Origin: Solirubrobacterales bacterium
GTDB lineage: Bacteria > Actinomycetota > Thermoleophilia > Solirubrobacterales > 70-9
Length of the DNA stretch: 64,000 nt
Assembly (NCBI GenBank): GCA_017304845.1
Contig: JAFKLL010000024.1
Location: 1-64,000, forward strand
Reading direction: 5' to 3'
The notes below the pieces were generated by a model, which saw only the letters and a program-made list of their open reading frames with translations, made no database searches and was not told where the DNA came from. How positions within the stretch are numbered: position 1 is the first letter of the stretch; each line of letters begins with the position of its first letter. A program made the translations under genes and the position numbers. Below are positions 1 to 7,631 of this stretch, in pieces.

Positions 1-375
1 ATGACGCTCGTCTTCTCGCCCAACCAGGCGCTGCTGGCCGCCTCCGCCGGAGCGACCTTCGTCTCCTGCTTCATGGGTCGCCTCGACGACATCTCGGTCG
101 ACTCGGCCAAGGTGCTCGAGGAGATCGTCGACGTGCTCCGGGCCCGAGACCTCCAGTCGAAGGTGCTCGCCGCCTCGATCCGCCATCCCGAGCACATGGT
201 CGTCGCCGCCTCGCTGGGCTGCGACATCGCGACCGTGCCGGCCAAGGTCTTCCACCAGATGCTGAACCACCCGCTCACCACCGAGGGCGCCGCCAAGTTC
301 GAAGAGGACTGGAAGAGCCGCCCCGAGTTCGGCGAGTGGCTGGCTGGCTTGGTGGCCGCGCGCAAGGCTCAGTAG
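1..375 (+). CDS. tal: Transaldolase / fructose-6-phosphate aldolase family, C-terminal part (5' truncated by window)
   Basis: Only the last 124 residues are present; the gene starts before the window. The fragment begins in the conserved strand TLVFSPNQALLAA followed by AGATFVSCFMGRLDD, the phosphate-binding end of the small (about 215-220 aa) TalC/Fsa-type transaldolase barrel. The Schiff-base lysine lies upstream and cannot be checked. The family moves a dihydroxyacetone unit between sugar phosphates in the non-oxidative pentose phosphate pathway, which fits the transketolase and glucose-6-phosphate isomerase genes at the other end of the window. The stop codon is 2 nt before the start of the Rho-like gene, so the two are probably cotranscribed. 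The first ATG of the window is probably an internal Met, not the true start. Confidence 0.88.
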   Translation: MTLVFSPNQALLAASAGATFVSCFMGRLDDISVDSAKVLEEIVDVLRARDLQSKVLAASIRHPEHMVVAASLGCDIATVPAKVFHQMLNHPLTTEGAAKFEEDWKSRPEFGEWLAGLVAARKAQ

Positions 376-377
376 AC

Positions 378-1757
378 ATGGCCGATCTCAAGTCGAAGTC
401 ACTGGCCGAGCTGCATGAGCTGGCCGGCGAGGCGGGCATCGAGAAGTTCCGCCTGCTGCGCCGGGAAGAGCTGATCGAGAAGCTCGGCGATTCGAAGGAT
501 TCCTCCGACGATTCCGGCGAGTCGGGCGGGCGCGACGGCGGTTCGTCGCGGCGGCGGCGGCGCGGCGGCGATCGTGATCGCGATCGTGACCGTGACGGCG
601 ACCGCGATCGTGGCAAGGGCCGCGAGCGCCGCGGCGACCGTGAGCGCCGCAGCGGCGGCGACCGGGACGAGAAGACCGACGAGCGCGAGGACAAGGATTC
701 CGGCCCGGAGCCCGAGCTGACCGAGATCACCGGCGTCCTCGACGTCCTGCCCCGGGGCAGCGGCATCATCCGTTCCGAGGATGGTCCCTCCGCCGGCATC
801 TACGTCTCGCCCGCCCAGATCCGCCGCTGCGAGCTGCGCTCCGGCGACGAGGTGAGCGGCCCGGTCCGTCCCGCCCGCCGTGGCGAGCGTCGCCCCTCGC
901 TGGTCCGGGTCGAGCTGGTCAACGGCGAGCCGCCGGTCGACGAGCGCGCCCCCCGGTTCGAGAGCCTGACCCCGGTCGCGCCGCACCGTCACATGCCGCT
1001 CAGCGGCGACGGCGACGACATCCTCGCCCGTTCGGTGGACCTCCTGGCTCCGCTGGCCTTCGGTCAGCGCGTCCTGGTCGAGGCCCAGCCCCGGTCGGGC
1101 CGGACCAGCTTCCTGCGGTCGCTGGCCAAGGCGATCGCCAAGGGCGCCGGCGACGAAGCCGAGATCATCGTCCTGCTGATCGACGAGCGGCCGGAAGAGG
1201 TCACCGCCTGGAGCCGCGAGGTTCCCGAGGTGGAGATCGCCGCCGCACCCGCCGATCTCGGTGCCCACGAGCAGGTTCGAGTGGCCGAGCGGATGCTGGC
1301 CAAGGTCAAGCGTCAGGCCGAGGCCGGCAACGACGTGGTGATCATCGTCGACTCGCTGACCAGGCTCGGCAACGCCTACGGCGATCCGGGTGCGGTCAAG
1401 CCCTTCTTCGGGGCCGGCCGCGAGCTGGAAGAGGACGGTGCCGGTTCGGTGACCGTGATCGCGACCGCGCTCTGGGGCGCTCCCGGCGACCAGGACGTGA
1501 TGGATGCGGTCCACACCACCGAGAACGCGACGATCCGCCTCGATGCGGGTCTCGCTGCCGCCGGCGTGGTGCCTTCGCTCGACGTGACCTCATGCGCGGT
1601 CTCCGGTCAGGAAGCCGTGCTGGATCAGGCCGGGGTGGACGCGGTGCGTCGCCTCCGGGCCGAGCTCAAGGACATGGAGCCGGTTCCGGCCGCCAACCGT
1701 CTGGCCGAGTTGATCAAGGGCTCCGCCAGCAACGAAGAGCTGCTGAACCGCCTGTAG
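378..1757 (+). CDS. rho: Rho-like transcription termination factor with degenerate ATPase and RNA-binding residues
   Basis: 459 aa from ATG 378; the in-frame ATG at 336 lies inside the transaldolase gene. Order: Rho_N helices (about 1-40), an Arg/Asp/Gly-rich insert (about 50-105) typical of actinobacterial Rho, an OB-fold with IYVSPAQIRR (about 110-190), then a RecA-like domain. The family is a hexameric RNA helicase that ends transcription. Kept: LLIDERPEEVT (catalytic Glu) and Walker B VIIVDSLTRL. Changed relative to E. coli Rho, compared from memory: P-loop PKAGKT is PRSGRT (Arg at about 239 and 242, so the Walker A Lys is lost); RNP1 GFGFLR is GSGIIR; about 15-20 residues covering the Q-loop are missing before KPFFGAGRE; the R-loop Lys and the Arg finger (SGTRKE) are lost. 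It may be an inactive or repurposed Rho. Confidence 0.85.
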   Translation: MADLKSKSLAELHELAGEAGIEKFRLLRREELIEKLGDSKDSSDDSGESGGRDGGSSRRRRRGGDRDRDRDRDGDRDRGKGRERRGDRERRSGGDRDEKTDEREDKDSGPEPELTEITGVLDVLPRGSGIIRSEDGPSAGIYVSPAQIRRCELRSGDEVSGPVRPARRGERRPSLVRVELVNGEPPVDERAPRFESLTPVAPHRHMPLSGDGDDILARSVDLLAPLAFGQRVLVEAQPRSGRTSFLRSLAKAIAKGAGDEAEIIVLLIDERPEEVTAWSREVPEVEIAAAPADLGAHEQVRVAERMLAKVKRQAEAGNDVVIIVDSLTRLGNAYGDPGAVKPFFGAGRELEEDGAGSVTVIATALWGAPGDQDVMDAVHTTENATIRLDAGLAAAGVVPSLDVTSCAVSGQEAVLDQAGVDAVRRLRAELKDMEPVPAANRLAELIKGSASNEELLNRL

Positions 1758-1826: not shown

Positions 1827-2345
1827 CTAGCGGCGGAAGGCGACTCGCCGCCAGGAGGGTTCCTTGGCGAGTTCGATCATCTCCGGCCCGCGTTCGGGCT
1901 GGATGTAGCCGAAGGTCTGGCGCTGCTCGTCGAAGACGATGTCGAGCTCGCCCTCTTTGACGCGCTGGTCGAGCCAGGCGCCACGGAAGACGAGGCGGCG
2001 GAGCCAGTGGACGAAGCTCTGGTTGGAGGGGCCGGTGAGGTCCTCCCAGTGGTGGGTGACGTGGACGCCCAGCTCGGAGGAGGGCTCGTCGATCTCGCCG
2101 CTGACCGCCAGGTGGAGCAGGTCGTTGATCTCGGCGAAGGTCAGCCCGGGCGTGACGAAGCCCAGCCGCACGGCGGCCTGCTCGACTCTCTGGCTGAAGT
2201 CCCGTTCGTTGAACGAGAATCGGAGATTGCCGTACTCGAGCACATAGTCGGTGCCCGACTCGTAGTTTCCTCTGCGGGTTTTCTTGCGTTCCACGGTTGA
2301 AGCCTTGAGCGCCCGCGGCATGGTCCTTGGGCACTCGGGCATCAT
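1827..2345 (-). CDS. Hypothetical protein, 172 aa
   Basis: Not recognised. The protein is soluble, with no signal peptide or membrane segment. The N-terminus is basic (ERKKTRRGNY), followed by a mixed region with NERDFSQRVEQAAVRLGF and a Trp-rich middle (THHWEDL, FVHWLRRLVF), ending in WRRVAFRR. It is a single gene, convergent with the Rho-like gene and divergent from the DUF192-Tad operon. The start is uncertain: ATG 2345 gives the full ORF, while an in-frame ATG at 2322 has AAGGA just upstream. GC-rich codon use like its neighbours supports a real gene; the function is unknown. Confidence 0.6.
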   Translation of the reverse strand: MMPECPRTMPRALKASTVERKKTRRGNYESGTDYVLEYGNLRFSFNERDFSQRVEQAAVRLGFVTPGLTFAEINDLLHLAVSGEIDEPSSELGVHVTHHWEDLTGPSNQSFVHWLRRLVFRGAWLDQRVKEGELDIVFDEQRQTFGYIQPERGPEMIELAKEPSWRRVAFRR

Positions 2346-4876: not shown

Positions 4877-5947
4877 ATGGATCCCCACGAGGCTCTCGCC
4901 GAGGAGATCCGGTCCGGGCTGGTCGAACGGCGTCGCGCCCGGGGCGGCGGGGGCACCGGCGTCGAGACGGCGATTCGCGAGGAGGTGGAGGAGCAGGCGG
5001 CGATGCTCTCTCCGGCCACCAGAGAACAGCTGGTCCAGGTCCTGCTCCGGGAGGCGTCGGGTCTCGGGCCGCTCGAAGTTCTCCTCGACGACCCGTCGGT
5101 TCAGGAGGTGATGGTGAACGGGCCCGATCTCGTCTACGTCGAGCGAGCCGGCCGGATCGAACCGGCTGGCATCCGCTTCGAGGACGAGGAGGATCTGCGG
5201 AACACGATCGAGAGGATCCTCGCTCCGCTCGGGCGGAGAGTCGACGAGTTGAGCCCGATGGCGGATGCCAGGCTGCCGGACGGCTCCCGGGTGAACGTGG
5301 TGATCCCGCCGCTCTCGGTCGACGGCCCCGCGGTGTCGATCCGGAGGTTCCCGGCCGACCGGCCCACGGTGGAGGATCTGGTCGATTGGGGGACTCTCGG
5401 CCAGGAGCAGGCCGAGCTGCTGAGAGAGCAGGTCAGGCGGCGTCGGAGCATCCTGATCAGCGGTGGGACGGGATCGGGCAAGACGACCCTCCTCAACGCG
5501 CTTTCCGGCTTCATAGAACCGTCCGAGCGGATAGTGACCATCGAGGATGCGGCCGAGCTGAGCCTGGCGCAGCCCCATGTCGTGAGGCTCGAGTCGCGGC
5601 CCGCGAGCATCGAGGGCCGGGGTCAGGTCACGATCCGCGACCTGCTCAAGAACGCATTGCGGATGAGGCCGGACCGGATCGTGATCGGCGAGGTCCGTGG
5701 GGCGGAGGCTCTCGACCTGCTCACCGCCCTCAACACAGGCCATGACGGTGCCCTGTCGACGGTCCACGCCAACTCGCCGGAGGATGCCCTCGCCCGGATC
5801 GAGGTGTTGGCGCTGATGGCCGACGTCGGGCTGCCGCTGGACGTGATCGCAGCGCAGCTCAGGCGCGGCGTCGACCTGGTGGTCCACATCTCGAGACAGG
5901 CCGACGGGACGCGTCGGGTGACCGCGATCGAAGAGGTCGGGTCGTGA
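4877..5947 (+). CDS. tadA: TadA/CpaF secretion ATPase
   Basis: 356 aa, starting at the base after the CpaB stop. The N-terminal domain (about 1-130) has [24 protein letters not shown], typical of CpaF. The GspE/PilT core holds Walker [17 protein letters not shown] (Gly at about 196), Asp box [18 protein letters not shown]-like [21 protein letters not shown] (split by the Walker B strand) and His box [15 protein letters not shown]. It is a cytoplasmic hexameric ATPase that powers assembly of the Tad pilus through TadB and TadC. It overlaps the TadB start by 4 nt. Confidence 0.96.
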
Positions 5948-6786
5948 ACGGGCTGGGACCGGCGCTGATGGCCGGGCTGGCGGCGATCCTCGCCATCGCC
6001 TCGGTCCGGGAACTGACCTCCGAGGGTGGGCTGCGCCTCGAATCGACTCTTGAACCGCTCCGCCGGGCGCACCGGGAGGGATACCTGCCGACCTCGGACG
6101 AGCGCTTCCGGCTGGCTCTCCTGTTCGCGGTGGCCGCCGCCCTGGGAGGTTGGTGGCTGGTCGGGCCGATCGCCGGCATGTCGTTGGTCGTCGTCTCGCC
6201 CCTCGCGGCGGGTTGGACGATCGCGCGGGGCGCGCGTCGATACCGGCGGGCGGTCGAACGCTCGTTGGCGGACGCGGCGCGGGCGATCGCCGATTGCCTG
6301 AGCGCCGGCCATTCGCCGCGCGGGGCGCTGGTCGCCTGCGCAGATTCGCTCGGCGGGCCGATCCGCAACGAGTTCGATCGCCTCGGGTACGAGCTCGAGT
6401 CGGGTGCGGCCACGGCGGACGCGATCCGGTCTTTCGCGCTTCGCTCTGGCTCGTCGGGAGTCGACGCCTTCGCGACGGCGTTGGTCAGTCAGAGACTGGC
6501 CGGAGGAGACCTCGCCGCGTTGCTCCGGCGTTTCGCCGAGGGCGCGGCCGAACGGGAACGAGTGGCGGAGGACGCCCGTTCGGCGACCGCGCAGGCACGG
6601 TTCACCGGGTACCTCGTCGTGGCGATGCCGATCGGCGGAGCGCTCTTCACCGAGTTGCTGCGGCCGGGTTTCCTGGGATCGATCGTCGATTCGGTCCCGG
6701 CCTTGGTCCTCGTCGCCCTCTCGGCCGGCATGCAGCTCGGTGGCTTCCTCGCGATCTCCAAGCTCGCCCGGATCGGTGGGACATGA
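5944..6786 (+). CDS. tadB: TadB inner-membrane platform protein (T2SSF domain)
   Basis: 280 aa from GTG 5944. Membrane segments occur near residues 4-20, 60-95, 220-240 and 248-270. Between them lies a cytoplasmic T2SSF domain (about 100-215) with [23 protein letters not shown] and [20 protein letters not shown] (two adjacent segments). TadB and TadC form the membrane platform turned by the TadA ATPase. Coding is continuous with TadA and TadC through 4-nt overlaps on both sides, so stoichiometric translation is likely. Confidence 0.9.
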
Positions 6787-7631
6787 GCCCGGTGCCCGCA
6801 CTGGTCGGGATTCTCGCTCTGGCCCTCGGCCTCTGGGGATTGAGGGAGCTGGCCCGCGAGGGTCACGGCGGCACGAGGTCGAGGGATGGCCGAGTCGTGC
6901 GGCGCGGCCGAGCTTTGCCGCGCGGGCTCGCGGAGGATCCGTTCGGGGTCGGGGAACGGATCAGGCGGGCGGGGCTGACCCGGTCCGTCTCGGTTCGCGC
7001 CGTGCTCATGCTCAAAGCCTTCGGTGCGGTTCTCGGCGGATTGGTCGGCAGCCTCTCGGCGGCGGCTCTGCCCGGGCGTCTCGCGCCACTGGTCCTGCTC
7101 GGATCGGCCGCGGGTGCGTTCTTCCTGCCCGACCTGTTGCTGGTCAGGGCCGGGAGACGGCGCCACCGCGGCATCGTCGCGGCCCTGCCGGACGTCCTCG
7201 ATCTGCTCGCGGTCTCGGTGGCGACGGGACGGGGGCTGGCTGGCAGCCTCGTCGATCTGGCCGGGTCAGGGCGGGGGCCGTTGGTCGAGGAGCTCGCGTC
7301 GGTCGGTGAGGACATGGCCTGGGGGAGCGGCCAGGCCGCGGCCCTGAAGGCGCTTCAGGCGCGGGTGGGAGGCCCCGAGATCGCCTCGTTCTGCTCGACG
7401 CTGGAACGGTCCCGGCGCCTGGGATCGCCGCTCGCGGACCAGTTGCGGCGTCAGTCGTCCACGCTCAGGCAGGATCAACGGCGGGCGATCGAAGAGGAAG
7501 CGGCCCGCGCCGCCCCGAAGATCCAACTGGTCATCGCCCTGATCCTGGTCCCCTCCGTGCTGCTCCTGATAGTCGCCGCTCTGGTCGCGAACGCGGACAG
7601 TCTCCTAAACCCCGCCGGTGCGGTCGATTAA
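6783..7631 (+). CDS. tadC: TadC inner-membrane platform protein (T2SSF domain)
   Basis: 282 aa from ATG 6783 (ATGA with the TadB stop); the ORF is open much further upstream but that part lies inside tadB. The N-terminal membrane helix (about 3-20) and a pair at about 80-120 precede a T2SSF domain with [19 protein letters not shown] and [21 protein letters not shown] final membrane helix ([20 protein letters not shown]) is near the C-terminus. No TadE/TadF, pilin or prepilin peptidase follows, so the pilus subunits must be encoded elsewhere. The last codons lie in the terminator palindrome 7618-7660. Confidence 0.9.

What the first reader, a model, noticed from the sequence alone, without database searches (positions are those of the whole stretch)
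378..1757. Rho homologue with degenerate catalytic and RNA-binding residues
Compared from memory with E. coli Rho, the P-loop PKAGKT reads PRSGRT, so the Walker A Lys is Arg (residue 242) and a second Lys (239) is also Arg. The RNP1 aromatics of GFGFLR are lost (GSGIIR). The Q-loop between the Walker B strand and FFGA is deleted, the R-loop Lys is absent and the arginine finger region (SGTRKE) is SGQEAV. Walker B and the catalytic Glu remain. A Rho that cannot hydrolyse ATP normally could be a regulator, an RNA-binding structural protein, or a fast-evolving paralogue beside a canonical Rho. The order tal-rho is a useful anchor for searching.
Basis: partly seen in the sequence, partly recalled or inferred. 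Interest (0 to 1): 0.75.

Follow-up and report, generated by a model that had tools for sequence, protein, structure and literature searches.

The report
Order-wide Rho without its motor
A whole order of bacteria keeps, as its only copy, a version of the near-universal transcription-stopping motor Rho whose engine parts are gone while its RNA-binding part is kept by selection, which makes the old question of whether Rho needs its motor testable in nature.

Summary
ORF 378-1757 (459 aa) is a Rho homologue with Walker A Lys184 changed to Arg, the Q-loop deleted, the R-loop lysine gone and the Arg finger gone; Walker B Asp and catalytic Glu are kept. It is not a paralogue beside a normal Rho: none of 151 genomes of its order (Solirubrobacterales) holds a canonical Rho, ten of them single-contig assemblies. 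Q-loop, R-loop Lys and finger R366 are missing in all 72 OB-bearing members aligned, while Walker A Lys and catalytic Glu decayed differently in different families. The gene is the direct orthologue of normal Rho: same locus (2-phosphoglycerate kinase-transaldolase-rho), same predicted fold (Z 41 to E. coli Rho), one clade. It is under purifying selection (dN/dS about 0.1), with the RNA-binding OB domain conserved and the motor eroded. Other families of the class have a normal Rho or none. Best reading: Rho was stripped of its translocase in or near the order's ancestor and kept as a motor-less RNA-binding, probably RNAP-associated factor. The anatomy is near certain; the retained function is inferred. 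New variant of a known kind, high interest.

The parts
378..1757 (+). motor-less Rho orthologue, 459 aa, the only rho-like gene found in this genome
384..482 (+). Rho_N helical domain (residues 3-35), the part kept in every family of the order, including the shortened forms
   Evidence: Pfam PF07498; alignments
501..716 (+). Arg/Asp-rich disordered linker (residues 42-113), pLDDT about 50, fast evolving
729..935 (+). OB-fold RNA-binding domain (residues 118-186); R66, Y80, R102, E108 equivalents kept, F62 and F64 lost
   Evidence: PF07497
1089..1106 (+). degenerate Walker A PRSGRT (238-243); Lys184 -> Arg242, Lys181 -> Arg239
1182..1199 (+). DERPEE (269-274): catalytic Glu and Arg valve kept in this family; the Glu is lost in the sister families
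1341..1355 (+). Walker B strand IIVDS (322-326), Asp kept
1374..1391 (+). site of the 17-residue Q-loop deletion (AYG|DPG, residues 333-338)
   Evidence: 20 residues from D265 to F301 against 37
1467..1490 (+). remnant of the R-loop (ALWGAPGD, 364-371), Lys326 absent
1602..1619 (+). former Arg-finger segment (SGQEAV, 409-414), R366 absent
1..375 (+). 3' part of transaldolase (tal), cut by the contig end; conserved upstream neighbour of rho, also beside canonical rho in another family
1827..2345 (-). conserved convergent downstream gene, no Pfam or NCBIfam match, neighbour of the motor-less rho across the order

Best explanation
This is the vertically inherited rho gene of the order, converted from an ATP-driven RNA translocase into a motor-less protein. 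Shown by sequence: the central-channel RNA grips (Q- and R-loop) and the Arg finger were lost in or near the order's ancestor; Walker A and the catalytic Glu then decayed separately in each family; the protein stayed under purifying selection with the OB RNA-binding face and the Rho_N domain kept; no other Rho is present. Inferred: it binds nascent RNA through Rho_N, the basic linker and the OB domain, and acts without translocation, most likely by standing on RNA polymerase or nascent RNA as a pausing, allosteric or coupling factor. It cannot pull RNA out of the elongation complex as E. coli Rho does.
For: Order-wide absence of canonical Rho: 0 of 151 genomes over the cut-off, 97 of them at least 90% complete, ten single-contig, while 42 of 119 class genomes and 211 of 246 phylum genomes do pass. 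Q-loop, K326 and R366 missing in 72/72 OB-bearing members aligned, R353 in 71/72. K184: R 26/27 in the window family, K 26/28 in f2, A/T/R/G/V/I in f3, A in f4; E211: kept 26/27 in f1, V/A in nearly all of f2, f3, f4. Orthology: the order 2-phosphoglycerate kinase-transaldolase-rho is shared by canonical f9 and motor-less f3, and tal-rho by f1 and f2; one clade, support 0.998. Purifying selection: dN/dS 0.09-0.20 over the gene, 0.02-0.12 OB, 0.05-0.14 ATPase scaffold. Of residues invariant in canonical Rho, 26/36 survive in the OB domain and 46/142 in the ATPase (Fisher p 2e-5). Confident Rho fold. Walker A/B, Glu, Arg valve and finger are required for catalysis and Q/R-loops translocate RNA (PMC8828861). 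A stand-by/allosteric route not using motor action has been proposed for E. coli Rho (PMC8964686).
Against: No biochemistry. K->R at Walker A can still allow ATP binding. f2 keeps Lys184 and has an Arg one residue from the finger position (SGTLR), so some nucleotide use is possible there. In genera g9 and g11 of the same family the OB domain itself is gone, so OB-RNA binding cannot be the whole retained function. The RNAP-association step rests on knowledge of E. coli Rho, not on data here. Faster evolution (Rho/RpoB distance ratio 2.9-6.3 against 0.88) also fits slow decay.
Confidence: 0.62

Rival explanations
1. An RNA chaperone or condensate scaffold: Rho_N plus the Arg-rich disordered linker plus the RecA core hold RNA in condensates or granules, with no link to termination.
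For: Long Arg/Asp-rich linker with pLDDT about 50; a poly-Arg stretch is kept even where the OB domain is lost; condensate formation by Rho through a disordered region is known in Bacteroides thetaiotaomicron (PMC13269538, PMC10284900, abstracts).
Against: The linker is the least conserved part (dN/dS 0.23-0.56); canonical actinobacterial Rho also has such linkers; the folded ATPase scaffold is under strong selection, which a pure linker function would not need.
Confidence: 0.2
2. A rewired but still active NTPase or translocase: Arg replaces the Walker A Lys, another residue serves as finger, and RNA is gripped by other loops.
For: Walker B Asp, Arg valve R212 and catalytic Glu kept in the window family; ATPase scaffold dN/dS 0.05-0.14; f2 keeps Lys184 and has an Arg shifted by one at the finger.
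Against: No family keeps a full set: f1 lacks Lys, f2 lacks the Glu, f3 and f4 lack both. Q- and R-loop are gone in all, and f3 ends just after the finger segment.
Confidence: 0.1
3. A vestige on its way out: Rho became dispensable in the ancestor, was lost in families f5, f7 and f10, and is still eroding here.
For: No Rho detected in f5, f7, f10, which group with this order on the RpoB tree; much faster evolution than RpoB; shortened forms in g9 and g11.
Against: dN/dS well below 1 in the window's genus; the frame is open in nearly all members over the age of an order; specific OB and Rho_N residues are invariant.
Confidence: 0.07
4. A paralogue beside a canonical Rho missed by incomplete assemblies, or an assembly artefact.
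For: The window's own genome is only 74.7% complete.
Against: Ten single-contig and 97 at-least-90%-complete genomes of the order show the same; the position is the ancestral rho locus.
Confidence: 0.01

Closest known systems
Canonical transcription termination factor Rho (E. coli; PDB 5jji, 8ptg; TIGR00767)
   Same: Domain order Rho_N-OB-RecA, fold (VIA Z 41.4, rmsd 5.8, 351 residues), Walker B Asp, Arg valve, primary-site residues R66, Y80, E108, ancestral locus
   Different: Walker A Lys, Q-loop, R-loop Lys, R353 and Arg finger lost; below the NCBIfam cut-offs
Mycobacterium tuberculosis Rho (PDB 7oqh)
   Same: Actinomycetota, charged disordered N-terminal insert; a motor-independent mechanism was once proposed for it
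   Different: All catalytic residues are present, and a later study found it to be a true motor (PMC8828861, PMC4499133)
Divergent Rho of actinomycete family f34 and of G442 (f62), found here
   Same: Walker A Lys lost (Arg, Gly, Ala or Val), no second Rho detected
   Different: Arose in a distant lineage (RpoB tree), Q-loop mostly kept or shortened, finger Arg sometimes kept: an independent, milder decay
Rho short-form paralogue Rho2 (NF041509)
   Same: Rho-derived OB plus ATPase domains
   Different: 219 bits against a cut-off of 628; here the gene is the ancestral single copy

Membership tests
Rho protein family (by descent) | Rho_N, Rho_RNA_bind (OB) and RecA-type ATPase domains in this order | tested here: met
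   PF07498 31.9, PF07497 67.9, PF00006 44.3 bits, all over the cut-off
Rho protein family (by descent) | Rho fold | tested here: met
   AlphaFold pLDDT 88; Foldseek 8e-35 and VIA Z 41.4 to Rho chains, next family Z about 26
Rho protein family (by descent) | Position in the ancestral rho locus (orthology) | tested here: met
   2-phosphoglycerate kinase-tal-rho in canonical f9 and motor-less f3; tal-rho in f1 and f2
Termination factor Rho (NCBIfam equivalogs TIGR00767, NF006886) | Curated score cut-off | tested here: not met
   256.8 < 509.45 and 273 < 315 bits; 0 of 151 order genomes pass TIGR00767
Rho as RNA-dependent ATPase/translocase | Walker A Lys184 | tested here: not met
   Arg242
Rho as RNA-dependent ATPase/translocase | Walker B Asp265 and catalytic Glu211 | tested here: met
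   D325 and E270 in the window protein
Rho as RNA-dependent ATPase/translocase | Q-loop and R-loop (secondary RNA site) | tested here: not met
   17 residues deleted; K326 aligns to Pro
Rho as RNA-dependent ATPase/translocase | Arginine finger R366 | tested here: not met
   Ser at the aligned position, no Arg in the segment
Rho as RNA-dependent ATPase/translocase | Hexamer formation and RNA-stimulated ATP hydrolysis | not testable with these tools
   needs purified protein
Rho2 short form (NF041509) | Curated score cut-off | tested here: not met
   219.1 < 628
Flagellar/type-III-secretion ATPases (FliI, SctN) | Curated score cut-offs | tested here: not met
   these models score 20-42 bits, far below their cut-offs

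The most novel reading that the evidence does not exclude
A natural Rho that influences transcription elongation or termination purely by binding RNA and RNA polymerase (the allosteric/stand-by route), with no ATP-driven translocation, serving a whole bacterial order that also shows no excess of intrinsic terminators.
Probability: 0.33. Interest if true: 0.95.

Novelty: new variant of a known kind. Interest (0 to 1): 0.83.

Why it matters
Rho is treated as a near-universal ATP motor, and its catalytic residues as highly conserved across phyla (PMC8828861). Whether RNA release needs motor force or allosteric change is debated (PMC8964686), and a motor-independent claim for M. tuberculosis Rho was contradicted by a later study (PMC4499133). 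Here one class of bacteria has run the experiment: normal Rho in some families, motor-less Rho in the four families of this order, no Rho in three more. It is a natural series for asking which part of Rho a cell cannot do without, and how high-GC bacteria end transcripts with neither a Rho motor nor evident intrinsic terminators. These lineages should also be naturally indifferent to bicyclomycin, which acts on the Rho motor (inference).

Tried and rejected
Second canonical Rho in the genome: searched with PF07497 and TIGR00767, none; the only other hit (C7, 39 bits, ATPase region only) is at the level of F/V-type ATPases. Pseudogene: rejected by dN/dS and open frames. The rho of G135 looks split by a frameshift, but its rpoB is split too, so I count it as sequencing error. 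Degenerate Rho hidden in f5, f7, f10: a profile of the divergent forms (A2) found only ATPase-region matches, E about 1e-7 or weaker. Compensation by intrinsic terminators: not seen; 2.9 per 100 kb against 2.3 expected by shuffling in motor-less genomes, 7.1 against 2.9 in canonical-Rho relatives, 1 against 1.1 in the window (one search agrees). That is a crude scan on a small sample, confounded by G+C. Literature on Rho in Thermoleophilia or Conexibacter: none in the held library; the two surveys that matter most (D'Heygere 2013, Moreira 2024) could not be read, the second being tried and not held, so novelty is checked only in part. Organism names are known only for the window's near relatives; families are given as the f-numbers of the genome search. 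The Rho tree puts f1 outside f2+f3+f4 and the RpoB tree puts f2 outside f1+f3+f4; which branch came first is unsettled. The motif columns were read from one MAFFT alignment; a subset re-aligned separately gave the same residues.

Full report
OBSERVATION. The ORF at 378-1757 is real: 459 aa, open, Rho_N + OB + RecA domains, 257 bits to TIGR00767 against a cut-off of 509 and 273 to NF006886 against 315. Against E. coli Rho (E. coli numbering) the window protein has K181R, K184R, F62S, F64I, a 17-residue gap where the Q-loop lies, K326->P, R347A, K352A, R353G and R366S; it keeps T185, D210, E211, R212, D265, R269, R66, Y80, R102 and E108.

NOT A PARALOGUE. The genome (a MAG, 2.49 Mb, 59 contigs, 74.7% complete; window = contig C41) has no other Rho. 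Congeners carry the same gene at 59-87% identity. Named relatives are 'Solirubrobacterales bacterium' MAGs, among them isolate 67-14. In 151 genomes of the order no Rho passes the family cut-off, although the same search passes 8 of 14 control genomes, 42 of 119 genomes of the class and 211 of 246 of the phylum. Ten of the 151 are single-contig assemblies and 97 are at least 90% complete.

PATTERN OF LOSS. I aligned 91 Rho proteins: 27 from the window's family f1, 4 shortened forms from genera g9 and g11 of f1, 28 from f2, 16 from f3, 1 from f4, 14 canonical relatives from f6, f8, f9, and E. coli. From Walker B Asp to the FFGA Phe, canonical proteins have 37 residues, f1 has 20 (27/27) and f2, f3, f4 have 15 (45/45). 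The R-loop segment A317-G339 is 23 in canonical, mostly 21 in f1 without the Lys, and 8-14 in f2, f3, f4. R366 is absent in all 72, R353 in 71. K184 is Arg in 26/27 of f1, Cys in the shortened forms, Lys in 26/28 of f2, Ala/Thr/Arg/Gly/Val/Ile in f3 and Ala in f4. E211 is kept in 26/27 of f1 but is mostly Val or Ala in f2, f3 and f4. So loss of the RNA grips is shared, while the ATP pocket broke in different ways: f1 lost the Lys and kept the Glu, f2 did the reverse, f3 and f4 lost both. f3 proteins end just after the old finger segment. Genera g9 and g11 have lost the OB domain and the C-terminal half. Further f4 members agree.

ORTHOLOGY AND HISTORY. The gene order 2-phosphoglycerate kinase-transaldolase-rho is the same at canonical rho of f9 (L146, L152) and at motor-less rho of f3 (L096); transaldolase lies directly upstream of rho in f1 and f2 too. 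The divergent proteins form one clade with support 0.998. On an RpoB tree f8, f6 and f9 (canonical Rho) are basal; then comes a clade (0.907) of f7+f10 (no Rho found), f5 (no Rho found) and f1-f4 (motor-less Rho; f5+f1-4 support 1.0, f1-4 support 1.0). Absence in f5, f7 and f10 was tested with the divergent profile as well. The likely history is relaxation of the need for Rho in the shared ancestor, two or more outright losses, and retention of a stripped Rho in this order. A similar decay arose apart in actinomycete family f34 (5 of 5 genomes below the cut-off, Walker A Lys lost in all five) and in G442 of f62, so Rho motor decay is recurrent.

SELECTION. In the window's genus dN/dS is 0.09-0.20 for the gene, 0.02-0.12 for the OB domain, 0.05-0.14 for the ATPase scaffold and 0.23-0.56 for the linker (some pairs are near saturation of synonymous sites). 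Rho/RpoB distance ratios are 0.88 among canonical relatives and 2.9-6.3 within the divergent set. Of residues invariant in canonical Rho, 26 of 36 in the OB domain and 46 of 142 in the ATPase domain survive in at least half of the divergent proteins (odds ratio 5.4, p 2e-5). Constraint thus moved from motor to RNA-binding face and core fold.

STRUCTURE. AlphaFold gives pLDDT 88, Rho fold, VIA Z 41.4 to 5jji (rmsd 5.8, 351 aligned residues), the next family at Z about 26. The f2 form is also well folded (pLDDT 82). The RecA core survives although its catalytic parts do not.

MECHANISM. Shown: loss of translocation and catalysis parts, retention of RNA-binding residues and fold, sole copy, selection. 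[quoted passage not shown] Inference: the protein holds RNA and probably RNA polymerase without pulling. E. coli Rho has a proposed stand-by/allosteric mode that need not use motor force (PMC8964686); a motor-less Rho would be confined to such a mode. Rival: an RNA chaperone or condensate scaffold. The loss of the OB domain in g9 and g11 warns that the retained function may sit in Rho_N, linker and RecA core.

WHAT IT WORKS LIKE VERSUS WHAT IT IS. By descent, locus and fold it is a member of the Rho family. As a Rho-type ATPase/translocase it fails tested defining features (Walker A Lys, Q-loop, R-loop, finger, curated cut-offs), so it should not be annotated as a working termination factor.

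LIMITS. No biochemistry; hexamer formation untested; the two chief surveys of Rho diversity could not be read; family names beyond the window's near relatives are unknown here; one gene tree for species history.

Noticed in passing
families f5, f7, f10 of the same class (e.g. G156, G158, single-contig genomes): No Rho of any kind detected in about 44 sampled genomes, many over 95% complete: another Rho-less group of bacteria.
   Followed up: partly
L217, L219, L273, L274, L275 (family f34) and L215 (G442, f62): An independent group of divergent Rho with the Walker A Lys lost and no other Rho found in those genomes; f34 is 5 of 5 genomes.
   Followed up: partly
L110, L112, L141, L161-L166 (genera g9 and g11 of family f1): A further shortened Rho of about 220-280 aa: Rho_N, poly-Arg linker and half a RecA core, with the OB domain and C-terminal half gone and the Walker A motif changed beyond recognition.
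   Followed up: partly
window 1827-2345 (-) and equivalents: A conserved convergent gene (no Pfam or NCBIfam match) sits downstream of the motor-less rho across all four families; not seen in the canonical rho loci examined, whose flanks were short.
   Followed up: partly
window 1-64000 and loci L260-L272: Intrinsic-terminator-like sites are no more frequent than in shuffled sequence in motor-less and Rho-less genomes, but modestly enriched in canonical-Rho relatives; how these cells end transcripts is open.
   Followed up: partly
G135:C1:3013890-3015033 and its rpoB at 4796641-4799953: rho and rpoB are both split by frameshifts in this single-contig genome, which points to indel errors in that assembly.
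   Followed up: yes
G160, G175 (genus g58 of f9): No Rho found in two 97-98% complete genomes whose congeners have canonical Rho: recent loss or assembly gap.
   Followed up: no
window 4877-7631: A CpaF/TadA-like ATPase ORF (4877-5947) followed by ORFs that look like TadB/TadC-type membrane proteins: probably a tight-adherence or type IV pilus-like secretion cluster (by eye, no family search run).
   Followed up: no
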